Positions 28,185 through 58,102 of a stretch of 64,000 nucleotides of DNA are shown here, piece by piece. The notes beneath the pieces were generated by a model. It saw only the letters and a list, made by a program, of their open reading frames with translations. It was not told where the DNA came from and made no database searches. Position 1 is the stretch's first letter. Each line of letters starts with the position of its first letter. The stretch is from Macrotrachela quadricornifera (Eukaryota > Rotifera > Eurotatoria > Philodinida > Philodinidae), in NCBI GenBank assembly GCA_022393335.1, contig JAJEKB010021016.1:201493-265492 (forward strand), given 5' to 3'. The position numbers and the translations under genes were made by a program.

Positions 28185-28911
28185 TTAACGCTTTCACGGC
28201 GATGTGATTTTCCTGGAAAATAGAAAGATTCATTTTCATGTATATTCACATTCCGAAAAATACTTTTGTTGATATTTTTAATATGGGCCACCAATTGTTT
28301 TTCTGTTTTCATGTGTTCATAAACAACTGAAATTCTACAATGATTACATGTTTTTTGAAGAAACCGATAGAGAAAGCAGAGATAACTCCTTGACTGATAT
28401 GAGTGTTTTGTGTGGTAATTTTGTTAGAATGCAATTCAAACTTTCAAAACTCCGTAAAACAAATTATCAATGGTGATGTAAATTTACAAAGAAAGCTATA
28501 CTGTCAACAATGACACGACAATTATACAGTTTCGTCAAAGTTTTGTTCGGTCCTTACTTTTTCGTATGCTATTCTAGAAGCCAAAATCCGATTTGAAGCC
28601 TAAACTCGCTGGTCACAAGCTAGAAGAAATAGAAAAATCTGCACACAATGTCCAAAGACGGTGTGCTAATTGCTATGAAAAAATCGGGCAACAACAATCA
28701 CGAGAAGTAGATGCGATGGCAGCAAAGCAAATAAAAAGCATTCCTCTGTGTAATAAAATGGCTCATACAGTAGCAAAGATGAACTAAATAAACAACTGAT
28801 TTTCGCTTATTGCTTAGAAGAAAAAGAAAAAAAAATCTGTTTCTCTTGTCATTTATTTTGTTAAAATATATTGTGAGCCACCGATGGCTCACATCACCTT
28901 GAAAGATTCAA
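28185..28911 (+). mobile_element. piggyBac-like relic, short copy
   Basis: It begins TTAA followed by CGCTTTCACGGCGAT. It ends with the inverted ATCACCTTGAAAGA next to TCAA, a one-base change from TTAA. The same termini and interior occur at 54383-55321. A 64-codon frame (28593-28787) encodes HKLEEIEKSA followed by RRC-NCYEK, which resembles the Cys-rich C-terminus of piggyBac transposases. The rest of the transposase is missing. Compared with the other copy, 53 bp between two AATAAAAAGC repeats has been lost. Confidence 0.75.
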
Positions 28912-35998: not shown

Positions 35999-38900
35999 AT
36001 GGCTAATAGTGGGAGGTAAAAAAAAAGTAACTTTCTATATCTTTTAATCATATACAACTTAGGGCTTCATGGGCAACTTCTTTGGCAATATGTTGTATTT
36101 TCTTAACACTTTTTTTGATTGTTGGAACAATTATTTTGGCATTAATACCTGTTTATTTAACATCAAGAGATATTAATCCAAATACAAATCCACGTAAGTT
36201 AACATTCGATATTATTTTATTAAAATAACTGAATATATTGTTTGTAGAACAAACAACACTTATTGGTGCATATGGTTCAAATTTAGAGAATGGTCGATCA
36301 CTTACATTGTCTCCTTCAAGTCCTGATGGTCGTCAGGTTTAGAATTGTTGTCTTTACCTAATTCTCTTAATTAGTATTTTGTTTTTAATTCAGTTAATTC
36401 AACGTGCTGGTTTACAAAATAGTGGAGTTACTGTACCAGCACGTAGTTTTAGAAATGCAATACCAGCAAATGGAAAAAAGAGACAAGTACTCACTGAGTT
36501 AGTAAAATAAAATCTTTTATTTTATTATCATTTTTTTTTTTTGTATTTTATAGAAATCCTATTTGTGAACAACCAATAACTTTAACAGGAGATATATATT
36601 TGGCACAATTTAATATTCCACAATCATCATTTTGTAGTTCAAGAGACTGTCAAGAACAACGTCTTTCAAATATGCAAGATTCTCTTCGAATGTCGTCTCA
36701 AATATTTTCAGTTGATATGTTCTTTACTAATGGACAGACACAAGCTGTTCAACTAGCATTTTGTGGTTTTTACACTTCAGGTAGATTAAAAATAATCAAA
36801 AACCAATATATATTTTTAGTCATTACAATAAACTTCTATATTTATTTATTGAAAACTTCGTTTTCATTTCATATAAAATTATTCTAATAGAAATTTTATT
36901 CTTTATTTATATAGCCAAGCTTTTTTTTTGTTGTATTATAGATTCTGTGGACGTTCCTACAAATTCAACAACCTCTTCTACATCATCAACAAATGCCATA
37001 ACAACATCAACAAACACCATATCAACGTTAACAAACACTGTACTAACAACAACAACAACAACGACATCAACAAACTGCATTACAGAAACAATAAATTATA
37101 TTTATTTAATGACTTACACTAATATTTTATATCGATTCAGTCCAACAACACTTGATTTAACACAAGTTGGTACAGTAAATTGTTCATCAACTGCTACTAA
37201 TTATTACATTGCTCTCCAAAGTAATGGTATACTTTGGGCATTAGCAGAAGATGGAACATTGTATACATATAATATCAGAACTGCACAATGTATACAAACG
37301 GCATTTGCACGAAATCAAAGTGGTATTAGTCGTTTTAGTATGGCATTTGCTAAGAACGATAATGGTAATGGTGAAACATTATATATTAGCAAACAGAATG
37401 ATGAGGGTCGCGTCTTTGGAACAATTAATTTATCTACACTCACCATCTCAATTATAGGAAATTTTAACGATGGTTTATACGGAGATTTATCAGGTACCAA
37501 TGATGGTAGATTATATGGTTTGTTTGCTGACACAGACTTTATTATTAAAGGAATTAATAAATCAAATGCTCAAATTTTATCACAATTTCTAATCCATCAA
37601 TACCAAAACATAGATGCTTATGCATTTGCACCTTACAATTCAAAATTTTTCTTTTTTCTCTTTGAAAACAACTCAACAACTATACATTTGTCTGATCCAG
37701 CGACAAATACAACCACTGATATAAAAACAGTACCTCAAATGTTCTATACTGCTGCTACTTCCACATGTTTAGCAAATACACCTATCAACATTACAACAAC
37801 AACAGCAGCTGGTACAACAACAACAGCAGCTGGTACAANNNNNNNNNNCAGCAGCTGGTACAACAACAACAGCAGCTGGTACAACAACAACAGCAATTGG
37901 TGTGACAACAACAACAACAACAACAGCAATTGGTATGACAACAACAACAACAACAGCAATTGGTATAACAACAACAACAACAACAACAATTGGTATGACA
38001 ACAACAACAGCAGCTGGTACAACAACAACAGCAATTGGTGTGACAACAACAACAGCAATTGCTGCTACGACCACAACAGTAATTGGTACTACAAACACAA
38101 CAGCAACTGGTGGTACAACAACAACAACAACGACTGCTGTTACAACGAGAAGTGATTGTGCAGCAGAAACTAAAAATTACGTTTATTTTATAAATAATAA
38201 TAGTGTTCTATATCAGTTTACTCCAAAAACTCGTCAAGTGACAAAAGTTGGTACGATTAATTGTTCAGTTTCGGAATCTATTAATTCCATCGCAGTACAG
38301 CGAAATGGATTAATTTGGGTGTTATTAACTAATGGAAAACTCTATACATATAATATTAATACTACACAATGTGTGGAAACACCATTTATGAGAAATCAAA
38401 CAGACATTACGAATTTTACAATGGCATTTGTCAATAACGATGATGATAATGATGAAACATTATACATTAGTAAACAAAATGATGAAGGCGGTGTTTTAGG
38501 TACTATTGATTTAACTACACTTAAGATTTCCATTGTTGGTGATTATTGTGATAGCTCACCTGCTGATTTAGCAGGAACACCTGATGGTCAATTATTTGGC
38601 TTCTTTCATGATCAATCTGACACAATTAAAGAAATTGATAAAACAAATGCTGCAATCTTAAATGAATATCCATTGGAGTCACCAAGTAACAATGATAACA
38701 TAAAGACTCTGACATATTTTCCTTACAATTCAAAATTTTTTATTTTTACTGGCTATAGCGATCATACTAATATAGCTACTTTTGATCCATCAACAAGAAC
38801 TACGACTAGTGAAGCAACTGTGTCTGAAACAAACTTCTTTATTGCTACTGTTTCAACGTGTTTACGTACTACAACTAATGCTTCAATGATGAGTGATTGT

Positions 38901-41162
38901 ATAACAGAAACACAAAATTATGCTTATCTTATCAATGAAAATAATGTTCTATTTCAATTTTCTCCAATGACTCTTCAGTTGCAAGAAATCGGTATGATTA
39001 ATTGTTCAGCATTTGAATCTATTAATTCAATTGCAATTGAACATAATGGAACAATTTGGGTGTTATATAGTGATGGAAATCTCTATATATATGATATTAA
39101 AACTAAAGAATGTAGGGAAACACCATTTATGGCAAATGAAACATGCATTACGAATTTCACTATGGCATTTGTCAAAAATGATGAGGATAATAATGAAACA
39201 TTATACATAAGTAAACTAAACGACGAAGGAGGTCTCTTAGGAACAATTGATTTAATTACATTTGAGGTGTACATTATTGGTAATTATAGTAATGGTTCAC
39301 TTGCTGATTTAACTGGAACACCTGATGGTCGATTATTTGGCTTATTTTATGATTCAATGGATATAATTAAAGAAATTAATAAAACAAATGCTGAAATTAT
39401 ACGGGAATATCCATTAGAAGAAGCAGTTGTTTGCGAAGACATAATATCTTCTTCATTTTTTCCTTATAACTCAAAATTTTTTATTTTTACCGGCTATAAG
39501 GATCGTACTGATATAGGTATATTTGATCCAATGACAAACACTACAACGTATGAAGGAAGCGTTTCTGAAACGAATTTATTTATTGCTGGTATTTCAACAT
39601 GTTTGGATAGTTCAACAAATGTTACAACAACGACAACAATAACAACGACTGCTGTTACAACAAAAACAACATCAACGACTGCTGTTATGCCAGGAAGTAA
39701 CTGTATTGGAGAAACTGAAAAATACGTTTATTTTATAAATAATAATAGTGTTCTATATCAGTTTATTCCAAAAACTCTTCAGCTGACAGAAGTTGGTATG
39801 ATTAATTGTTCAGGTTCTGAATCCATTAATTCATTCGCTGTCCAGCGAAATGGATTAGTTTGGGTGTTATTAACTAATGGAAAACTCTATACATATAATA
39901 TTAATACTACACAATGTGTGGAAACACCATTTATGAGAAATCAAACAGACATTACGGATTTCACTATGGCATTTATCAAAGACGATAATGATAATAATGA
40001 AACACTATACATTAGTAAACAAAACGATGAAGGTGGTATCTTAGGTACTATTGATTTAACTACACTTAAGATTTCCATTGTTGGTAATTATTGTGATGGT
40101 TCATCTGCTGATATAGCGGGAACACCTGATGGTCGATTATTTGGTTTGTTTCATGATCAATACGACTCAATTAAAGAAATTGATAAAACAAATGCGGAAA
40201 TTTTATCTGAGTATCCAGTCGAGTCATCGAGTAACGATGATGATATAGAAACGCTTACATATTTTCCTTATAACTCAAAATTTTTTATTTTTACTGGTTA
40301 TTGCGATCATACTGATATATCTATTTTTGATCCATCAACAAGAATTACAACCTATCAAGCAACTACGTCTGAAACAAACTTATTTATTACTACTGTTTCC
40401 ACATGTTTGCGTACTACAACTAATGCTTCAATGATGAGTGATTGTATAACAGAAACACAAAATTATGCTTATCTTATTAATAAAAATAATGTTCTATTTC
40501 AATTTTCTCCCATGACTCTTCAGTTGGAAGAAGTTGGTATGATTAATTGTTCAGTATTTGAATCTATTAATTCAATCGCGATTGAACATAATGGAACAAT
40601 TTGGGTATTATTAAGTAATAGAAATCTCTATATATATGATATTAAAACTAAAAAATGTATGAACACACCATTTATGTCAAATGAAACATGCATTACGGAT
40701 TTCACTATGGCATTTGTCAAAAACGATGAGGATAATAATGAAACATTATACATAAGTAATCTAAACGACGAAGGAGGTCTCTTAGGAACAATTGATTTAA
40801 TTACATTTGAGGTGTACATTATTGGTAATTATAGTAATGGTTCACTTGCTGATTTAACTGGAACACCTGATGGTCGATTATATGGCTTATTTTATGATTC
40901 AATGGATATAATTAAAGAAATTAATAAAACAAATGCTGAAATTATACGGGAATATCCATTAGAAGAAGCAGTTGTTTGCGAAGACATAATGTCTTCTTCA
41001 TTTTTTCCTTATAACTCAACATTTTTTATTTTTACCGGCTATAAGGATCGTACTGATATAGGTATATTTGATCCAATGACAAACACTACAACGTATGAAG
41101 CAAGTGTATCTCAAACCAATTTATTCATGGCTGCTGTGTCAAGTTGTTTAAAAACAAATTAG
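35999..41162 (+). CDS. Type II membrane protein, mucin-like linkers and five repeat domains
   Basis: Exons 35999-36015, 36063-36193, 36248-36336, 36394-36497, 36554-36780 and 36942-41162 join in phase. A cytoplasmic tail of a few residues precedes one long hydrophobic anchor (residues about 10-37), so the rest faces outside. After a Cys-containing stalk (NPICEQP, FCSSRDC) come five domains of about 225-235 aa, at roughly 37070-37775, 38150-38865, 38890-39605, 39695-40420 and 40435-41150. Each contains an INCS-like block, LYTYNI, MAFxxND, ETLYISKxNDEGG, DGRLFGLF, PYNSKFFIFTGY and a closing STCL. The strand-rich pattern suggests a beta-propeller-like fold. Thr-rich, probably O-glycosylated linkers join domains 1-2 and 3-4. 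An assembly gap of 10 N (37839-37848) lies in the first linker. The total is about 1590 aa. The function is unknown; an adhesive or surface-coat role is a guess. Confidence 0.8.
37793..38127 (+). repeat. Coding minisatellite (Thr/Ala/Gly linker) with assembly gap
   Basis: Repeats built from ACAACAACA runs plus GCAGCTGGT or GCAATTGGT encode TTTTAAGT or TTTTAIGM units in the first linker of the membrane protein. Ten N at 37839-37848 mark an unresolved part. The frames before and after the gap agree only if the true missing length is a multiple of three, so 10 is not the real length. Confidence 0.9.
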
Positions 41163-42525
41163 AATTTTTTAATATTCAAACTAAATTTTTTTTTCGTATA
41201 TTTGGTTTTTAATGTATACATTCTTTATATATATATCGATGTTTTTTTCATATCACAGGTGATGTATTAGATACAAAAACTAACAATGACGAAGTACTTC
41301 ATAATTATAGTGAGATAAATACTGTTTTACATGTATACATATGGCTGCATATTTTTAATTAAATTTGTTATTCTTAGGAATTATTATGGCTAATCAATCA
41401 CTCATTTAAATTTCAGCTTAATTTTGATTGAAAAACAAGGATTAATGAGTGAAGATTATGAAATCACTTTAAAAAATGTTTACTATTCAAGTGTATTCTA
41501 GATGTGCGATATAATATTTGTTGTAATAGAGATCATAGAATAGATTTAAATAATTCGTATATATTTTTACTACTTAAATATCTCGTGAAAAAAGTTGCAT
41601 TGACAGTAAATTCTCATTTTTGTCCAAGTAAAAATAAAATTATTGACAAGGACAAATAACGTCTATGAAAAACAAAAACATATTATTGCATATATGAAGG
41701 TGCACTCTCCTAAATGCATATGATTAAACAAATATGTGAGTCATTATTATAAATTTATGCGTTCTTACTTTTTTCTTTAGAATCGAAATACTTCCTACCT
41801 AAGATAATTATTTAACATAGAAAAAAAGAATGTTCTTTTGTAATTTTTTTTAAATCATGGAGAAATAAAATATAATATATTTTTTTTTGACGAAGTCTGT
41901 ATCACTTATTGATGATGAAATTCATTAAGTAAAGAGATGGTACTTTAATAATGAAAAAAAAATCAAAATAATGCCAAAGAAACATAATTATTGTCTAAAC
42001 AAAATAGCAAAAAATCAAGTATTTGTATAAAAAAACATTCACATATCTTGTGAAACATTCAAGTACGATATTCTGCATTATAAACAAAATATCGTCTCTT
42101 TAAAAGATTAACGAATTTCTTTACATATTTGGGTTATTCAATCATATCCTAGTTTAACGATGGTGTACAAAAAGAATACTGACATAAGAATTGTACTGTA
42201 TAATATTAAAGAATTACCGTTTTCAATAAAATAGTGATGGAGATATGATTATTCTTTTACAATGTTTTTATACTCTTTTCTTATCGAAGACAAATAACAC
42301 GAACATGATTAATAAAAGAAAGAAGAAGTCTTTCGTAATTTATGTTGTTCTTGCGTAAGTTTCTTTCTTATATATATATATTAAGAAATTCTTTTGTTGA
42401 ATTATACATTTAGTTTATAGAATTTAATTTCTTATTCTTTTAATTGTATTATTAAATTTGTACATTTTTTGGTAAGTTATTTCTTATAGATTTAGAAAAA
42501 GTATTAATTATATTATATTTAGAAT
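41163..42525. other. Intergenic, no gene seen
   Basis: AT-rich DNA between the membrane-protein gene and the PARP-like gene. No coding or repeat structure recognised. Confidence 0.45.
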
Positions 42526-43575
42526 ATGATGTTAGCTAATGATTATGATAATTTTGATTATAATTCAAGTCAAAATTCTTCTGAAATTGAATATCAAATT
42601 GATCTATTTGAATCTCGTCAATATTTCAAATGTCGAAAAAATAAACAAAAAATAAAAAAATCTTTATGTTCAATCTCATTAAAAACTCTTAAATCTCAAC
42701 CACTATTAATTAAAAATAAATGTATAAGTTATAAAAAAACACCAAAAGCTGAACAAAAATCATTTCGTTATAATCATTATCCACAAGAAGAAAAAGAAAA
42801 ATTTGAATGTGATGAACAATTTCAAGTATCAAATAAATCAATTTCTATTGAATCAAATCGTTCAAAAGTACTTGAAGATGAACATTTCGAAAATTTTTCA
42901 AATTTTCGTCGTCATTTTTATAATCTAAATCATCAACAAATTAAATCATCTCTTGAAAATTTTCCTTATATTAAAATTACTGATATTCTTATTGCATCAG
43001 TAAATGAATCTGTTCAAAAGAATTTTATGAAAACATTAAATCAAAATAAATCGCGTTTTCCTCAATTAGTTTATCATGGAACAAAATTAAAAAATATCCC
43101 TAGTATTCTTCAATATGGACTTTTAATACCAAATCAAGCACATCCAATCAATGATGAAGCCCCTATTATTGTCTCAGGAAATGGTCAATCATTTGGTACT
43201 GGAATTTATTGTAGTCAAACAGCTATTTATTCTTTATCATATGTTCATATGACTAATACTCTATTAGTATGTGCAGCAATACCAAAACGTAAGAAAGATG
43301 GAAAAATGGAACGTTGTCATGGAAATATATTAGTTTTATCGGATGTAACAAGAATTATACCATTATTTTTAGTTAATTTCAAATATTTAAATCGATCAGG
43401 TATCAATCAACCTTGGTTTAGTGTACAAGAAGAATTAAAAACAGTTAAGGAGACGAATAGGGAAAAATCTGTTGTTATTTCAAGAAAATATTTAAGAAAA
43501 GTACTCTGTTATATGAATGATCAAGTACGAAAGAATAGTCAATATCAAATACGAATGTTTGATTCATTCAACTAA
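42526..43575 (+). CDS. PARP-like ADP-ribosyltransferase domain protein
   Basis: A single exon encodes 349 aa. Residues 1-170 are Lys/Ser/Asn-rich and probably disordered. From about 183 the PARP-type core appears: LVYHGTKLKNI (the conserved HGT), ILQYGLLIPNQ, FGTGIYCSQTAIYSLSY (the conserved GIY-S followed by a Tyr), and a strand with LLVCAAIPKRK. It ends with a PLFLVNFKYLN segment. The His and Tyr that hold NAD in PARPs are visible. The third catalytic residue is not Glu in any position I can align, which suggests mono-ADP-ribosylation, another use of the fold, or loss of activity. It would transfer ADP-ribose from NAD to an unknown intracellular target. The closest resemblance is to small PARP-core proteins of invertebrates, some of which are fused to E2 domains. 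It lies 5.3 kb upstream of the ADP-ribosyltransferase/E2 locus on the same strand. Confidence 0.6.
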   Translation: MMLANDYDNFDYNSSQNSSEIEYQIDLFESRQYFKCRKNKQKIKKSLCSISLKTLKSQPLLIKNKCISYKKTPKAEQKSFRYNHYPQEEKEKFECDEQFQVSNKSISIESNRSKVLEDEHFENFSNFRRHFYNLNHQQIKSSLENFPYIKITDILIASVNESVQKNFMKTLNQNKSRFPQLVYHGTKLKNIPSILQYGLLIPNQAHPINDEAPIIVSGNGQSFGTGIYCSQTAIYSLSYVHMTNTLLVCAAIPKRKKDGKMERCHGNILVLSDVTRIIPLFLVNFKYLNRSGINQPWFSVQEELKTVKETNREKSVVISRKYLRKVLCYMNDQVRKNSQYQIRMFDSFN

Positions 43576-48194: not shown

Positions 48195-48853
48195 CATGCT
48201 AATGGCCGTCATCAATAAACTCTTGTTTTCTTTTATTATTTTTCTTTTTTGTTTTATTTTTATAATATTCTGTTTGTGTTTAGAATTGAAATTGTGAGTT
48301 ATTTTAATTGCATCTTGAGAAATATTATATTAAGTATATGTGTTTTTGAAATGGACTACGAAACATAATTTTTGGCAATATCAGATAACTGTTGTTTATT
48401 AGTTTTAATAATTAGTTGCATTATATTTCTATGTTAAAGGAATTATGCCCTTTTCAGTCGAGTTTGTATGCAAAAGTAATAATATTTATTTGTGAATATG
48501 CACATTTATTTAGAGACAATTAGTTATGATCCTGAAATATCTACAAAATCTTTACGGGGCATTTTTGCAATGAACGTACCCCAATCGCTAAATGCACTTA
48601 AATTAAGCAGATTTATTTTTTTTTTGAATCTGTTAAAAGATTTATATTACACTCACCCTACGATTGATTGACTATCTGGTACTATTGAATTTTAATTTTA
48701 GAATTAATTTTGGAGTCTTTTTCGATTTTCAAATTAATTTTGGATAGAAATTCTTAATACCGATTATTTATATCACTCGACAAGTTTTTTAATCAGATCG
48801 ATAATCGCTATCGTGGTATTTATACCATATTATACTGACATCCTACCCTCAAG
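48195..48853. other. Upstream region of the ADP-ribosyltransferase-like gene
   Basis: AT-rich, no gene seen. It separates the tandem repeats from the start codon at 48854. Confidence 0.4.
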
Positions 48854-51427
48854 ATGGCATTAAGTGCAACACATCGAATTATTTGGTTAGATGCATTCAA
48901 TGAAGAAGATGGTAAATGTCGCAGTTTCGAACGTATGTTCTGCACTACATTAGGTCGAAATTCTGAAGTGGATAATGTGTTAAATGTACTAATATGTGCT
49001 TTAAATGAGAATGCTGTTCCCTTTATATTTGTTGACGAACCTAAAAAAGCAATTCATGAAATTGAAATTAATCATGACAAACATATTATATTTATTTCAT
49101 CAGGATCCCTTGCTCTAGATATTATTTCATCTATTACTTCTACATATCCTAATGTTTATTCATTATTTATCTTTTGTGGTACAATGACAAATTATGTTGA
49201 ATTTGCTTGTAACTATCGACATTGCCTGCAAATTTTTGACAGTGAACTCGATTTACTTGTAAGACTTTTCCGTGATATATCATGGAAAATAATTGAAGAA
49301 GGAAAAGAACGTTTGGTTGTAAATGATCCAGAAGGTGCACTCAAGTATTTTAGACTTTCTGGTACACTGGAAAATGCAGCAAATGAAACAGATAAACTCA
49401 ATAATTTATTTCTCGATCATCTTATATTGCTAAATGGTTCTGAAGATGAGATTGGGCTCATTCAGCAAGCAGAAGACCTGAAAAGACAACAAGCCGAACA
49501 AAGAGAAGAACAACAAGTAGAACCATTGCCTCTGCAATATGATTCACAAGGACAAGTACGAGGAGCAATAAACCAAAATCTAGGCTTATCGATAACGGTA
49601 CGAGCATTACAAGACGAGGAATCAGCTGATTCGTCCCACAGAGAACCTAGCGAATTACCATTAGGAATTCCGAATTTCTCCGGCCCCATCACGGCATCTT
49701 CACCTGCTCATGCTTTTGAGACGAGACTCACGCCCACCCAAGTGAGAATTAGCGAGAAAGAACTAAAAAAAGTTGACATTATATTTCTGAATGTCGTTAG
49801 CGATGAGTGTTGTACAAAAAATATTGAAGCGGCCCATAATATATTTGTTGGACTTTCAAAAGTTAAGAATGAAATCAAAGAATTCAATAATATTGATCGA
49901 TGTTTTATGTATATAAAAATGCAAGAAAACAACCAAATTTACTTAATTTTACTGACGGCTCTAAGCGGAGAGAGAATGTCAACCTTACGAGATTACTCTC
50001 AAGTAGTCTTTGTCTACCAACTCGATTCACCAAACCCATATATAAAAGATAAGCGTTCGGTTGACAATTTCGAATTATGTGAGTCATTGATTAATGGTGA
50101 ACTATGCGCATATCACCGATTTATGTGTTTTGAATCCTTCTTTTATACGGCATGTAGAGATGCTATAGCAAAACCACCTCAAGAATTCGACAAAGTTTCT
50201 CGTGAGTTTATCTGGTATCAACTAGCTGTCGAAGTAATCTTTCGTCTTCGAAACACTGAAGAAAACAAGAAAGACTTCATTGAACTCGCTTTCCATTTAT
50301 ATTCCGAAAATTCTACTGACAGAAAGGATATTGAAGAATTCAATAGTAAGTATATGAAAAACGCCATCAATTGGTACACAAGGTCATCATTTGTTTATCG
50401 TATTGTGAGTCTTTCATTTTCGCCTCGTGAAGTCTACCGTATATTCAAAATTCGCTACTTCGTTATTGATTTATACAATGAGTTAAAACAACTTCATGAC
50501 GAATATTCTTCATACTTTAATCGTCTAATACATGTACATCGTGGAAAGAGAATGGCCATCGACGAGTTTCACAAGCTGAAAGCAAGCATAAACGAGCTTG
50601 TAATCACAATAACTTTCTTGGCAACTTCTTTAAACCCGCAAGTGGCTTGTTTCTTCGCTGGTGATGGATTAGTGCCTAATGGCTACGTTTCAGTTATTTT
50701 TTACATGACTATTGACACACAAATCAATAAATCGAAGGCGTTCGCATTCGTCGGACATAAAAGTACTAAACAAGATGAGGATGAATGTTTGCTACCCCCT
50801 GGAATGATATTTTGCAACAAAGATATTAACAATATTTCGGTATGTCTGTTTTTCAGCCGAATCCAAGCATCGCTTTTCTCATTCTAGGAAAAACTGTATG
50901 TAGTGAAATTGGAACACGGGCTGGAAGAGGAAAATCTGCAAGAAGAATATAATCGTTCGAAAGCTGCTGATTTTGAAAAAGCAAAGGATATTAAATCACT
51001 GGAAGATTTCGAACATTTCACGATGCAGATCTCGCATTTATCAGAAGAGCCAACAAGTGATAACCCAATTGAACTAGAAATTCGCGAACAATGTGAGCGA
51101 AAATTAGTTATGTTAATACATGGATTCATCTCTAATCTTTTAGACACACCAGTCTCGATGGAAAATCCACCTCCACAAGTACTCGTACAAAGGCCGCCGA
51201 CTGCAGAAAATAGTGAGTCAACGTTCAGATGTAAATATGGATGTCATATTTTTTCACTCTCAACCCAAACGCTAGGCTCAGGTTTCATTACCCTTTCTAC
51301 TGAGATCTTCCAAAATTCCCAGATGGCATATGAGTTACGAGATGTGTCTATAGATCTGTTCGAAAACGAAGTGACCTCAGAATGCAAATTGCTAAACTCA
51401 GATCGTCAGAAATTGCATCCAAAATAG
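48854..51427 (+). CDS. Mono-ADP-ribosyltransferase-like protein with two N-terminal Rossmann-like domains
   Basis: Exon 48854-50839 joins exon 2 (from 50888) across a 48-bp intron in phase; unspliced beyond that, the frame ends at 51427 (841 aa). Residues 1-170 and about 305-430 are two copies of a strand-helix domain (HRIIWLDAFNEE...HIIFISSG; VDIIFLNVV...YLILLTALSG). Between them is a Gln/Glu-rich helix. Residues about 495-680 match the ART fold expanded in rotifers: AINWYTRSSFVYRIV, a helix ending LYNELKQLH, then VHRGKRM (R of the R-S-E triad), FLATSLN in the Ser-motif position (first Ser is Ala), AFAFVGHKS and EDECLLPPGMIF (E-x-E). It probably transfers ADP-ribose from NAD to proteins, though the altered Ser motif leaves activity uncertain. 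A strong donor (GTGAGT at 51213) in phase with the E2 exons at 53061 suggests a longer fused product. Confidence 0.75.
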
Positions 51428-51766
51428 AGTTACCTTCATCATAAAATATTTAACCTCTGCCTTTACAAAGCTATAGGTGTATGTCTAAGTTGGTGTGGAT
51501 CCTTGTGTTCGATGCCATCATATGGATATTCATACGATTCATTCGATATATATTGGCCTGCCATACAACATATACATCCGCACTTATTCACCCTCCTCAT
51601 AATTGGCACTTAATATCCCCTTCTTTGTTTCCTGCGAAAATTACAGCAACCCAGTGAGCTCTAAAATTTTGCATTCCTTTGATATATTGCAAAACTTAGT
51701 TTCCCTAAAGTGTTCTTAGTTGACCTGTGAAATATTAGAAACCACTTTTATAATGCTTTTGTATAT
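51428..51766. other. Probable intron sequence of the ART-E2 gene
   Basis: No coding signature. If the donor at 51213 is used, this is the first part of an intron that was 562 bp long before the hAT insertion. Confidence 0.4.
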
Positions 51767-51774
51767 GTTACAGA

Positions 51775-53053
51775 CAGTGTTGCCACCTTCTAAAGTCCAA
51801 AAAGCAGAAAACAATTTATAAATAGCAGAAAATGCCAGAAAGTTCATCATCGAAAAGCAGAAAGAAAACAGAAAGCCTATTTTTTGTGACATAAACGATT
51901 TTTAAACTTGTTCCAGTGTATTAATTAAAAAATTTTACATTAAATTTTCATCTTTATTGTACAAAATCAAGAAATAGACCTACTTAATTGGCGAATAGGA
52001 TTATTGGGCACATTTTCTTTGGACTACATATTTTCCATTTGATTTCATAGCTTTTAATAAATCTTAATTATCCGATAGATATTTACGCATCTTAGTTATG
52101 ATAAGGAGAAAATTAAACGTATTTTTACTTCCGCGATATAGGTTTTCTTCTCGTACAATTCCATTTATTATATGATAAATGTTTCAATTCTGAGAATGCT
52201 GAGTCCACATAAGCATTGCTACAGGATGGTAAAGACATATAAGAAGCATATGAACTTTTTAAAATTTGATGATTGAAGTGAGAGAAAATATAAACATTCA
52301 TAACCGGTTGGATATGAGAATTTTGTTGACTGTTAAGTTATTGTCATTTAGAATAAAATAAGACCACCAGTAACTATTACAAATAAGTCGCGACTGAAGA
52401 TTCCGTATCAGAGATGAAAGATTTTCTTTTCTCAGAATTACCAAAATTCTATAAGATTTTTTTTGAGAATCGTTCGACTTAAATTCGTCTGGTCATGTAT
52501 AGAATCGAACAGACCAACGATGAAAGTGAAAGGTTCAGTTTCAGCACGGGAGTAACTAGGAGGGATCGTGTGGAGTGCTGCACCCCCGCTTCTGAAAATA
52601 TTATTTTTGCTTTGGTCAAAAAATTGTGTTTTCGGGGATGTTTTGATGCTGAATCTACACGAATGAAGACTTTGCGCCTTCCTGCCTCTGAGACCAAGGT
52701 ACGCCCCTGAGTATCGGTCAGTCTGTTTGGTTGTATGCATGGCTAAATGAAATCAACTTAAGTAATTCTCCATAAAATTGTCTTCGATTTTGTGGGTTTT
52801 TTGTAAAAGAAAAGTTCTTATCCTTATTGGGCATTATTTATTCTCAATACATCTTCGGTAAGTACGGTCAAAATTTCTGTTATAATTATGAAAGAAAAGA
52901 TCTTTCGAAAGAAAAATGTTGGTTAAAAATGTAAACAATAAAATATTTAAAAAAGCAGGAAAACGCTCAAAAAGCAGAAACGACAGAAAAAAAGCAGAAA
53001 AACCTTCAAAAAGCAGAATTTTTCTGCTAAAAGCAGAAGAGGTGGCAACTCTG
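51775..53053. mobile_element. hAT-like element inserted at a splice acceptor
   Basis: The 1279-bp element has ends CAGTGTTGCCACCT and, inverted, CAGAGTTGCCACCT, typical of hAT. It is flanked by an exact 8-bp duplication GTTACAGA (51767-51774 and 53054-53061). The target is the splice acceptor of the downstream E2 exon: the restored empty site reads TATGTTACAG then ATCCTCC. AAAAGCAGAAA repeats fill both subterminal regions. No transposase is encoded. A smaller hAT-like MITE is nested at 52545-52709. Confidence 0.9.
52545..52709 (-). mobile_element. 165-bp hAT-like MITE nested in the larger hAT
   Basis: The right end, read inverted, is CAGGGGCGTACCTTGG, a common hAT terminus. The left end CACGGGAGTAACTAGG matches it at 12 of 16 positions. 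The flanking 8-mers agtttcag and agtatcgg agree at six of eight positions, consistent with an aged target duplication. This block is less AT-rich than its host, which fits a separate origin. Confidence 0.55.
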
Positions 53054-53060
53054 GTTACAG

Positions 53061-53731
53061 ATCCTCCTATCAATAGAACTCATTATCTACCAAATTTTCC
53101 TTTATCGACAACAAAATATCTTTGGAAGCAAATACAACAACTCAAGTTGTCAAGCATGGAAGGACACGCAACAATTCCTTTTATTATTGACCAAAGTCCT
53201 TTCAATGAAGGAGCAGAGCCGACTTTATTTGGGAACGATTGTGTTCTCATTGGTCGAATATTTCCATTTTCCGACATCTACAACAAAGCTAGTTACAAAA
53301 TACAAAATGACTTTCCACCTGCATATCCCTTCCAGCCACCGGAAGTTCGTTTTATCACTCCTATCTATCATCCGAATGTCGATAAGAATGGTCTGTCAAA
53401 CATAAAACCAATATAGATTCTCAATCAGTGAGTTTTACCTTCTAAATTGATTTTTTTAGGCAGAATATCACTGAAGATTCTCGATAAGAACGCTTTGTGG
53501 TCACCGGTTGTATCTTTGGTTCAAGTTATCGAAAACGTAATCAAATTAGTTGACAATCCCGAGCCTGATAACGCTCTCTCAACAGGTCAGTATCTGTTTC
53601 ATGCTTGCCTCTGTTCATCGATCCATCAATTTTTCTTTGTAGAAATTGCAGCCGAGTTTGTCTTCAACAGATCTGAATTTAATCGTAAAGCGATGGAATG
53701 TGTAGAACGTCACGGATTGCCTCGAGCATAA
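53061..53731 (+). CDS. Ubiquitin-conjugating (E2/UEV-like) domain, Ser in place of active-site Cys
   Basis: Exons 53061-53390, 53460-53585 and 53643-53731 join in phase (181 codons after a split first codon). The fold markers of E2 enzymes are present in order: a helix with KYLWKQIQQLK, strands ending YKIQNDFPPAYPF, QPPEVRFITPIYHPNV (the HPN triad), then NGRISLKIL, ALWSPVVSLVQVIENV and a C-terminal helix ending ECVERHGLPRA. In active E2s the eighth residue after HPN is the thioester Cys; here it is Ser, right after an intron. It is therefore a UEV-like or altered E2 domain. No start codon precedes it: the exon begins with an acceptor in phase 1, which fits the phase-1 GTGAGT donor of the ART gene upstream. 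It most likely is the C-terminal part of that protein (951 aa in total). Confidence 0.75.
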
Positions 53732-54382: not shown

Positions 54383-55321
54383 TTAACCCTTTCATGACGA
54401 TTCGATTTTCCTAGAAAATAGCTTCAATAGAGTCATGCTCAATATGTGTCACCAGTTGCCGTTCTGTTTGTATCATTAAATAGGTGATCCTCTTTCATAT
54501 TGAATTGAATAATTACTGCCAATTTTGTTTTTTTCCTTCTTTATATGTATGATACAAAAGGAATGAGATAACAAAAAGAAGTTTTAACTTCTTCTCTTTT
54601 GCATTCTTTTTATAGCATTATTTGAGTTTTTCTTCTTGCGTGTTCATAAACAACTGAAATTCTACGAGGATTGCATGTTGTTTGAGGAAACCGATAGAGA
54701 AACCAGAGGTAACTCGTTGACTAATACGAGTATTTTGCATGGTAATTTTGCTAGAATGCAATTCAAATTTTCAAAACTCCATAAAAGAAATTACTAGTGG
54801 TGACGTAAATTTACAGAGAAAGCTATGCTGCCAACAATGGCACGATAACTCTGCAGTTTCATCAAAGTTTTGTTTGGTGCTTACTTTTTGATATGTCATT
54901 CGAGATCGAGAATCCAAAATCCGATTCAAAGCAACAATCAACAAGTAATTTGAAGCTTAAACTCGCTAGTCACAAGCTAGAAGAAATAGAAAAATCTGCA
55001 CACAATGCCCAAAGACGATGTGCTAGTTGCTATGAGAAAATTAGCCAACAACAATCAAGAGAAGTAAGTGCGATGACAGCAAAGCGAATAAAAAGCTTTC
55101 TGTTCTGATTGTGACAAATTCTTTTATCTTAATTACTTTAATAAAAAGCATTCTTCTGCGTAATAAAATGGCTCATACAGTGGCAAAGATGAATTAAGTA
55201 AACGACTGATTTTCGCTTATTGCTCAGAAGAAAAAGAAAAAAGAATCTGTTTCTCTTATCATTTTCTTTCTTAAAATATATTGTGAGCCACCAGTGGCTC
55301 ATATCGCCTTGAAAGAGTTAA
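54383..55321 (+). mobile_element. piggyBac-like relic, long copy
   Basis: It is bounded by TTAA at 54383-54386 and 55318-55321, the exact piggyBac target duplication. The inverted ends are CCCTTTCATGACGAT and CTCTTTCAAGGCGAT. A frame at 54893-55108 encodes HKLEEIEKSAHNAQRRCASC, then after a frame change CSDCDKFF followed by a His, which resembles the Cys-rich C-terminal domain of piggyBac transposase. The catalytic core is missing. A near-identical relic lies at 28185-28911. Confidence 0.85.
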
Positions 55322-55936
55322 TTATATGTTCGATTTTCAGCAGTGTATTTATTTCTTTTTGGTTTGATGAGTTCTCATAAATGAGAAAATTTTGAAGAAA
55401 TCTTCAAATAATTTCAGCCGTCACTTCATACAAGCAAGGAAAACTTAGGTATTCTCAGTTGCCATTGCAAAGAAAAAACATAAGTGACACAAAACTCAAC
55501 CATCATCATCAATCTACGCATCTGTTTACATATTTGCTTATGGGATCGAGAATAAAAAATTTTCCGAAAATGAGAACAAAAAAAAATGTTACGGAAAGGG
55601 AAAGTAAAAGAAAAATTCCGGGAATGGGAAACAAGAGTCTAGGAAAATCATTGCCGTAGAACTCTACACTTACATCGACTATGTTCCGCGGCCTTTTCTC
55701 TTTTTGGCTGTTTCCGTCTAAAAAATGATTAAATTTTTTTTTTCTCTTCTTTATCGAACTAAACAGTAGCAGTATTCGAATTTCTAGTGTCTTCATGAGA
55801 ATTGGTTTTTTTCCTTCTTCCTTCCCGGCACGGCAAAAATAAACAACTATAAACTCTCATTTTTACGACTAGTTTTGCCTCTCTTTGACGCAGATAAAAG
55901 CAAACGTTTACGTTGATCAGCAACTATACTGTAGCA
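55322..55936. other. Intergenic, no gene seen
   Basis: Short spacer between the piggyBac relic and the next coding region; no recognisable content. Confidence 0.45.
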
Positions 55937-58102
55937 ATGAAAAGAGTAGCATCTGCAGTTCGATCGGCAAAGAAAACGAAAACTTCCAACATTTCAATTG
56001 TAACAACGTCAAGCGACGATTATGCTTCTTCATCAAAAGAAAAGTTACAACCTGTAAAAACGGATTTAACTATTTGGATCGATTCAACTGTGTATCAAAA
56101 CAAGCAAATACAAACTGGCATCAATCGTTCGATGAATGTTATAACATATATTCTATTAGCTAGTAATTATAAAAAATCTAAACAATGGCTAAAACAATAC
56201 CATGATAAGGAAGCGATTATTCTAATTGTTTCTGATAAACTTGGTAAGAAGATTGTGCCTTTTATTCGTGATTTAGCACAGATAAAATGTATCTATGTCT
56301 ATTGCACCGACCAAAAAATTACTAACAAATGGACTGAAAATTATTCGAAAGTGCAAAATATTTTTTCTGATGCGAATACTTTAATAAAACAAGTATCAAT
56401 ATATTTGAAAAATTCCAGGTACTACCAGTGTTCGTTTTGTCAACAACTGTTTCAAAAATTACCAGCTATCGATGTTGAATCATCTTATATCAAAGAAACA
56501 GTGGACAAGAATGAAGAAAATCGAGAAAGTATGTATCGATATTTTCAAATTGTTAATGAAAATGTGAAAAGCTTTTGAAGGTATTCTTACCAATCATCAA
56601 TTTGTGATTATTGATGTATCAAAAAAGTTAAATCAATTAGCTTCTGCCATGTTAGAATGTCTATATTCCCTCTCACAAGGTTCCATTATTATTTTTGATG
56701 ACGCTTTATCCATCGACTTTAATAAGCTGCCTAAGAAGACCAACATTTTTTTTGTAAGTAGCGAATTTGCTGATGAAATGAAAGGCAAATTTGAACCGAC
56801 CACAGCAGTTTTTATATTGGAAAAAGACAAGAAGAAGATTGATTATCAAGAACGGTTTGGTAGATCAGAAGATTTCATTTTTCAATTAACTGATGAATTA
56901 TACCGATGTCTTACAAAGGAAGCGACGGAATGCTCAGAACCCAGCAATTCATTAGCAACAAATAAAAAAAAAGAATTGGCCGATAATAATCACGGCGAGC
57001 TATTGAAGGTATATAAATCAGAACCTACAAGTTATAAAATTGCTACAACGTCTATTGGTACAACATCAACAATTATCTGGCTTAAACTGTGTTTAGAAAA
57101 TATCAATATAGCAGAATTGCACCACGTACTTTATGACGTTGTTTCATCATTTTTAGTATTTGACAATGTATCTCACTGCCACGAATATTTGCGAAAAAGT
57201 AGCCTCTATGATGCCGTATTTCTTGTAATCAGCATTGATGATGAAAACTTAGCTGTAGCTGAACTTCAACAATTTACTAATGTTCAGATTATCTATTGTT
57301 ATGGACAAACATCATCAGAAAATCAAGCAGTTATCCACAATTATAATGGTGTTCGCTTACGATTAATAAATAATCTTATTACTTATTACACCAAATTAGC
57401 TTCTGATTGTAGTACCAAATACAATGCAAAATCAGATGAAGATATACGTATGAAACTATATAAACGTCATAATATTCTTAATAAACTTTAAAGAAATCCT
57501 CTTCAATATTCTCTTTATTTTATAAATATAAATCATCGTTAAATTAAACTTCATTTTAGATGACATCGACCGAGAATATTCATTTTAATGATGATTTATA
57601 TGAAGTTGCTAAAGTGTGTACTCTTCTGCTTAATGAACTAAATGAACATGAAGTATCTGTGCCCATTGTCTTGCCGAATGTTGATCTAATGTCGTTTATT
57701 AAACCTTTTCATAAAAAAAGTGATTGTCATGAATATATCGAGAGAAACAATGATAAAAAGATTATATTGTTTGCTTAGTATAAAAACATACAACATTGGT
57801 TCTCATCTAATACCAATACACCAGAGAAACTCGAAAAAATAAAAATATTTTGTCATTCCACTGAAAAACCATACCTTACTGATTGAATACATCGTTATAT
57901 ACACAGATTTAGAACAACTGCGTTTGATATAATTGATTCGGACAAACTCAATCACGAATTATTATTATTCGGTGCCAATCTCTTAAAGACACCGTGTCCA
58001 GATTTACCATCTGATCCCGACTCACAAATACAATTGGTCAGGGACTACAAAAGGATTTGTCATGCTTTAGCTAATTATATTTGGTATGAAGCTAATAACT
58101 AA
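55937..58102 (+). pseudogene. Relative of rotifer ART-family N-terminal domains, with frame change and stops
   Basis: From ATG 55937 the first frame encodes a Lys/Ser-rich start and a domain with LTIWIDSTVYQNK, AIILIVSDKLGKKIVPFI, CIYVYCTDQ and SDANTLIKQV. This is the receiver-like domain also present at 48.9 kb. It stops at TGA 56576. Protein similarity continues at once in the +1 frame (FEGILTNHQFVIIDV), giving a second and a third such domain (STIIWLKLCLENI, DAVFLVISIDDEN) to 57491. A further in-frame block, 57560-58102, begins after a TTTTAG acceptor and looks like a fourth domain ending CHALANYIWYEANN. It carries internal TAG (57776) and TGA (57884). No ART catalytic domain follows. Several lesions suggest a decaying gene. 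The first junction reads UUU UGA A, a possible +1 frameshift site. Confidence 0.65.

What the first reader, a model, noticed from the sequence alone, without database searches (positions are those of the whole stretch)
48854..53731. Candidate ADP-ribosyltransferase-E2/UEV fusion gene
The ART-like frame contains a consensus donor (GTGAGT at 51213) in phase 1. The first E2 exon has its acceptor at 53060 and needs a phase-1 partner, and no start codon lies in front of it. Joining them gives one open frame of 952 codons: two Rossmann-like domains, an ART fold and a ubiquitin-conjugating fold. PARP-E2 fusions are known in some eukaryotes, and bacterial SidE enzymes link ADP-ribosylation with ubiquitin. 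An R-S-E-type ART joined to a Cys-less E2 fold would be a new combination as far as I know. The phase match alone has a one-in-three chance.
Basis: partly seen in the sequence, partly recalled or inferred. Interest (0 to 1): 0.85.

Follow-up and report, generated by a model that had tools for sequence, protein, structure and literature searches.

The report
Predicted rotifer ART-E2 fusion gene
A rotifer-type genome appears to carry a home-made gene that joins an ADP-ribosyltransferase-like domain to a ubiquitin-conjugating-like domain, but both active sites are altered, a transposon sits on the joining splice site, and no RNA evidence was available.

Summary
The splice anatomy is real: five exons (48854-53731) give one 951-aa frame; donor 51213 and acceptor 53060 are both phase 1. 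The C-terminus is a clear E2 fold (PF00179, 5.9e-30) with Ser at the catalytic Cys. ART identity holds through relatives: a four-ART profile hits arginine ADP-ribosyltransferase Vis (6.5e-4), and homologue P0011 passes PF03496. But R-S-E is not intact: the STS Ser is Ala, against Ser in 7 of 7 other rows. All three modules also occur as separate genes, so this looks like a three-way chimera. For fusion: coding signal stops near the donor; the nearest ART paralogue has a phase-1 donor there; the E2 has no start, whereas 20 of 21 paralogous frames do. Against: that paralogue splices to a 14-codon last exon instead; the two closest E2 relatives are predicted to start at the acceptor motif; a TIR element with 8-bp duplication sits exactly on the acceptor and leaves competing sites. 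No allele or transcript was found. I hold fusion at about 0.5. PARP6/8-E2 fusions are already known, so this would be a variant.

The parts
48854..50839 (+). exon 1: N-terminal 'MALS' module (about residues 1-257), alpha/beta module and ART-like domain
   Evidence: N-terminal part 74-78% DNA identity to 8 other places
48854..49625 (+). N-terminal module; elsewhere in this genome a separate 238-308-codon open frame
   Evidence: 7 of 8 read
50540..50542 (+). ART Arg (HRG motif), residue 563
   Evidence: invariant
50621..50623 (+). Ala590 in place of the first Ser of the STS motif
   Evidence: Ser in 7 of 7 other rows
50777..50785 (+). E-x-E motif (E-D-E, residues 642-644)
50840..50887 (+). intron 1, 48 bp; same position in ART paralogue L040
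50888..51212 (+). exon 2: helical-looking region after ART and Pro-rich linker
51213..53060 (+). intron 2 (phase 1), 1848 bp, holding the transposon; 561 bp without element and one TSD copy
51213..51427 (+). alternative unspliced end of the ART frame; no coding signal
51767..51774 (+). left target-site duplication GTTACAGA, with the native acceptor AG and its T-rich tract upstream
51775..53053 (.). hAT-like element, 1279 bp, TIR CAGTGTTGCCACCT / AGGTGGCAACTCTG, no ORF over 104 aa
53054..53061 (+). right target-site duplication; its AG is the acceptor used in the fusion model
53061..53390 (+). E2 exon A, no in-frame ATG before residue 32 of the module
53391..53459 (+). intron 3, after HPNVDKN(G); an intron at this place also occurs in cluster E2 paralogues
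53460..53585 (+). E2 exon B
53468..53470 (+). Ser at the E2 catalytic Cys position
53586..53642 (+). intron 4; an intron at this place also occurs in cluster paralogues
53643..53731 (+). E2 exon C and stop

Best explanation
A lineage-specific chimeric gene. Three rotifer gene families that also exist alone (an N-terminal alpha/beta 'MALS' module, a two- or three-exon ART gene, an E2-like gene) became one: the MALS stop and the ART start were lost, giving the long exon 1, and the phase-1 donor at the end of ART exon 2 was joined to a phase-1 acceptor in front of the E2, whose own start was lost. A hAT-like element later landed on that acceptor and duplicated it. Most likely role (inference): with Ala for the STS Ser and Ser for the E2 Cys, the protein would be a weakened or non-catalytic ART tethered to a UEV-like, ubiquitin- or E3-binding module, that is an adaptor rather than an enzyme coupling both reactions. 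Shown: frames, splice phases, homologies, altered residues, TSD. Inferred: splicing, order of events, expression, function.
For: Open 951-aa frame with matching phases. Coding signal ends at 51178-51220. Nearest ART paralogues C5417 and C4334 keep intron 1 at the same place and end exon 2 at a phase-1 donor A|GTAAGT. Of 21 E2-family frames found in the fetched loci (allele pairs counted apart), 20 have a Met in the open stretch before helix 1, as does Rotaria sordida P0003; the window E2 has none in frame back to the previous stop of the empty site. ART homologues P0007 and P0008 start about where the window is fused to the MALS module. The MALS paralogues read (7 of 8) end at a stop. A second locus, C4390, has ART then an E2 0.8 kb downstream on the same strand, with an acceptor-like TATATAG|AA in phase 1.
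Against: No RNA. The closest ART paralogues read as ending in a third exon of 14 codons, not an E2. One of the 21 E2 frames (L025, 3685) also lacks a Met and has no known ART in front, so loss of Met does not prove fusion. At C4390 the E2 has its own ATG and the late phase-1 donor is weak (0.6). P0004 and P0006, the E2s closest to the window (59 and 55% identity), are predicted to begin with a start at the acceptor motif, so that stretch could be coding in stand-alone E2s. The acceptor and both active sites are altered, as in a decaying gene. No second copy of the whole gene was found.
Confidence: 0.5

Rival explanations
1. Two neighbouring genes: an ART gene that ends in its own tiny third exon, and an E2 gene whose original start lay in the 'FVYVTD' stretch at the acceptor and has been lost by a 1-base shift and the insertion, leaving a dead E2.
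For: P0004 and P0006 align without gaps from their first residue through that stretch and are predicted to start there; in the window an ATG lies nearby but out of frame (ATGCTTTTGTATATG, empty site); C5417/C4334 read as having a tiny last exon; most E2-family frames read are stand-alone.
Against: Gene callers on unspliced eukaryotic DNA can start ORFs inside introns, and GTG/TTG starts may be written M (recalled); the stretch is T-rich and ends in AG as an acceptor would; the E2 frame is otherwise intact over three exons. The loss of coding signal near the donor fits splicing to any third exon, so it does not decide.
Confidence: 0.33
2. The fusion existed, but the element has broken it: splicing now goes to the upstream acceptor copy (51773), giving ART with tail NSVATF-stop, and the E2 is no longer translated with it. 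(Overlaps with the best explanation: it concerns the present allele.)
For: The TSD holds the AG; the upstream copy keeps the native T-rich tract (65% pyrimidine) while 53061 has 47% and the other three introns of the gene 71-82%; translation of that splice stops after six codons.
Against: Splice strength was judged only by simple pyrimidine counts; a TE-internal CAG at 53036 is also in frame with the E2.
Confidence: 0.3
3. The E2 is expressed alone from an ATG inside the transposon (52916).
For: ORF 52892-53416 is open from the element into the E2.
Against: No promoter evidence (not scanned); the added peptide is low-complexity transposon end.
Confidence: 0.04

Closest known systems
PARP6/8 clade (Clade 6A) PARP-UBCc fusions of fungi, moss, green alga (PMC2964712, PMC4245714; passages read)
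   Same: an ADP-ribosyltransferase-superfamily domain and an E2 domain in one protein, the E2 C-terminal in the fungal ones
   Different: theirs is a PARP catalytic domain and (fungal ones) an E2 with catalytic Cys; here the ART relates to arginine ARTs / PF03496 and the E2 has Ser; different N-terminus and lineage
SidE effectors
   Same: ART chemistry linked to ubiquitin
   Different: SidE carries an ART plus a phosphodiesterase domain, no E2 fold (recalled)
ART genes of the same genome: ART-TPR (L017, 722 aa), C5417, C4390, C1195
   Same: homologous alpha/beta + ART core
   Different: followed by TPRs, a tiny exon, a separate E2, or a MALS-type module (C1195)
Stand-alone E2-like family (clusters on C4161/C4551, C3457/C4765; Rotaria sordida P0003)
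   Same: same E2 subtype; both intron positions seen in cluster members
   Different: own Met in 20 of 21 frames, not joined to ART; several keep the Cys
Long ORF ending in an E2 in the same genome (L027, 991 codons)
   Same: long protein ending in an E2
   Different: von Willebrand-type look (named by eye, not scanned), no ART seen; its E2 motif keeps Cys

Membership tests
PARP-UBCc (Clade 6A) fusion | PARP catalytic domain (PF00644) | tested here: not met
   of two families listed at E up to 1 only UQ_con is significant in the 951-aa model; ART profile matches Vis instead
PARP-UBCc (Clade 6A) fusion | C-terminal UBCc domain | tested here: met
   given the splice model
PARP-UBCc (Clade 6A) fusion | catalytic Cys in UBCc | tested here: not met
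   Ser
R-S-E ART (arginine ART / exoenzyme type) | homology to ART families | tested here: met
R-S-E ART (arginine ART / exoenzyme type) | Arg and E-x-E | tested here: met
R-S-E ART (arginine ART / exoenzyme type) | STS first Ser | tested here: not met
   Ala; Ser in 7 of 7 others
R-S-E ART (arginine ART / exoenzyme type) | NAD-dependent transfer | not testable with these tools
   needs an assay
active E2 enzyme | E2 domain homology | tested here: met
active E2 enzyme | catalytic Cys | tested here: not met
UEV (Tsg101/Ube2v) | match to the UEV model PF05743 | tested here: not met
   not listed at E up to 1, (weak E 0.03-0.05 in relatives P0003 and L009)
hAT element | 8-bp TSD and short TIRs | tested here: met
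hAT element | transposase or genomic copies | tested here: inconclusive
   no ORF over 104 aa; the copy search did not complete

The most novel reading that the evidence does not exclude
A rotifer lineage evolved, perhaps twice (window and C4390, plus metagenome relatives P0004/P0006), proteins in which an arginine-type ART is physically joined to an E2-like domain, a route linking ADP-ribosylation and ubiquitin independent of PARP6/8-E2 and SidE, here in a pseudoenzyme form.
Probability: 0.15. Interest if true: 0.72.

Novelty: new variant of a known kind. Interest (0 to 1): 0.42.

Why it matters
If transcribed, it is an animal gene caught while being assembled from three families, with a transposon on the joining splice site, and a second, independent way to couple ADP-ribosylation-type and ubiquitin-type domains. 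It also shows that ART and E2-like families are expanded and shuffled here, so predicted combinations need RNA support before a function is claimed.

Tried and rejected
Rejected: ORF continuing to 51427 as the true ART end (no coding signal). Rejected as support: L017 'ART then E2' (the ART-TPR frame ends at a stop; the E2 is a short degenerate piece); L015 and L020 (ART and E2 on opposite strands). Donor GTRAGT alone as evidence: also four times in exon 1. Comparing by eye the listed E2 places and listed ART places gave two near pairs, window and C4390; both lists are capped (150 of 226 and 48 of 2044 candidates scored), so no rate is claimed. Single-sequence fold of the ART gave pLDDT 37.5 and was not used; the 6-sequence model has pLDDT 50.4 and only weak matches, topped by lysine decarboxylases for the N-terminal part. 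The E2 rows are anchored on the window and read through introns in some paralogues, so the Cys-position letters of L010_3337, L014_5525/7022, L025_6686/8186, L013 and L024 are not taken as real. Paper searches (listings only): of which 14 and 23 found no paper; none listed an arginine-ART plus E2 fusion in rotifers, within that open-access library. A fungal protein with Pfam PF13519, PF04564 and PF00179 (P0002) was the only hit. Never answered, so not known: an E2-only search of the own genome, a search for a second haplotype of the flanks, copies of the element.
Full report
The window is contig 4465, 201493-265492, of a 450-Mb genome. Its E2 has a 44% match to a Rotaria sordida protein, so a bdelloid or near relative is likely; the species was not identified.

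Gene model. Five exons give 951 codons plus stop: 48854-50839, 50888-51212, 53061-53390, 53460-53585, 53643-53731. All four introns are GT-AG; the one in question is 51213-53060. Pfam finds only UQ_con (5.9e-30, residues 842-942) at significance; the best solved relatives are UBE2L3 and UBE2T, about 2e-24 to 3e-23. The Cys position is Ser.

Three modules, each also found apart. A DNA search with 48800-51700 gave 9 places: itself and 8 others covering only about 48851-49625 at 74-78%; the 7 of 8 that I read are open frames of 238-308 codons that end at a stop. ART relatives: C5417/C5418/C4334 (40-41%), C1195, C4390, C4396, C1013/C4472 and long ART ORFs (capped). P0007 and P0008 start near window residue 276-285. 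E2s: clusters on C4161, C4551, C3457, C4765, some with the two introns of the window E2. So the window gene is chimeric at both ends. In C1195 a MALS-type module follows the ART instead: module order is shuffled in this genome.

The joint. In C5417 and C4334 the intron after ART exon 1 sits at the same place as in the window, and exon 2 ends at A|GTAAGT in phase 1 (score 5.6 in C5417); the next acceptor TTTCTTCTTAG, 88 bases on, gives a last exon of 14 codons ending in a stop. C4396 has a strong phase-1 and a fair phase-0 donor in exon 2. In the window the coding signal fades at 51178-51220. Two phase-1 donors, 51093 and 51213, score alike (2.9 and 2.7); the change-point favours 51213. So ART exon 2 very probably splices in phase 1 to something; whether that is the E2 is the open point.

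The E2 side. The empty site reads ...TTTTGTATATGTTACAG|ATCCTCC. No ATG lies in frame from the previous stop (NIRNHFYNAFVYVTDPPINR...) to residue 32 of the module. In a check made for this report, 20 of 21 E2-family frames in the fetched loci (allele pairs counted apart) have a Met in the open stretch before helix 1; the exception is L025 at 3685. P0004 and P0006, 119 and 112 aa, are the closest E2s and end at the same intron; their first residues M-V/I-F-V/I-Y-I-A/T-D align to the window's T-rich tract and AG. Either the acceptor is conserved and gene callers started inside the intron, or these E2s have a real start there and the window's is lost. I could not read their DNA. C4390 has a similar layout, ART then E2 on one strand 0.8 kb apart, with TTTATTTATATAG|AA in phase 1, but also an ATG further in, and only a weak late donor.

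The element. 51775-53053, 1279 bp, TIRs CAGTGTTGCCACCT/AGGTGGCAACTCTG, TSD GTTACAGA. The duplicated bases include the acceptor AG. Splicing to the upstream copy gives NSVATF-stop; splicing to 53037 or 53061 keeps the E2 frame. Pyrimidine content upstream of these is 65%, 53% and 47%, against 71-82% for the other three introns.

Judgement. A fused gene that is, or was until recently, real is my best reading at 0.5; separate genes 0.33; broken fusion (overlapping with the first) 0.3. With both catalytic residues replaced, an enzyme that couples the two reactions is unlikely. Known comparators: PARP6/8-UBCc fusions in Ascomycota, Basidiomycota, moss and green alga (PMC2964712 and PMC4245714, passages only).

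Noticed in passing
window 42523-43575 (+): 350-codon ORF with a PARP catalytic domain (PF00644, 1.2e-9), 5.3 kb upstream of the ART-E2 gene: a second ADP-ribosyltransferase-superfamily gene close by.
   Followed up: partly
window 55898-58102 (+): Next frames downstream look (by eye) like the WLD-type alpha/beta modules that go with ARTs here; no Pfam family was significant in the three pieces scanned.
   Followed up: no
L041 (C1195:7601-10600) 246-1244: ART exon 2 runs straight into a MALS-type module (30% identity, 7.9e-19): reverse module order of the window gene.
   Followed up: partly
L027 (C4565:240501-245000) 1-2973: 991-codon ORF ending in an E2 and resembling, by eye, von Willebrand-type proteins; domain not scanned.
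   Followed up: no
L014, L025, L010: In the E2 clusters the catalytic Cys is replaced in some copies (Ser at L014 4016 and its likely counterpart in L025, His in L010 323): loss of the active site in more than one member.
   Followed up: partly
window 37773-41162 (+): 1129-codon ORF with four repeats of about 720 bp, 78-91% identical.
   Followed up: no
window 28297-28906 and 54626-55316: Duplicated stretch, 82-91% identical, one copy just downstream of the E2.
   Followed up: no
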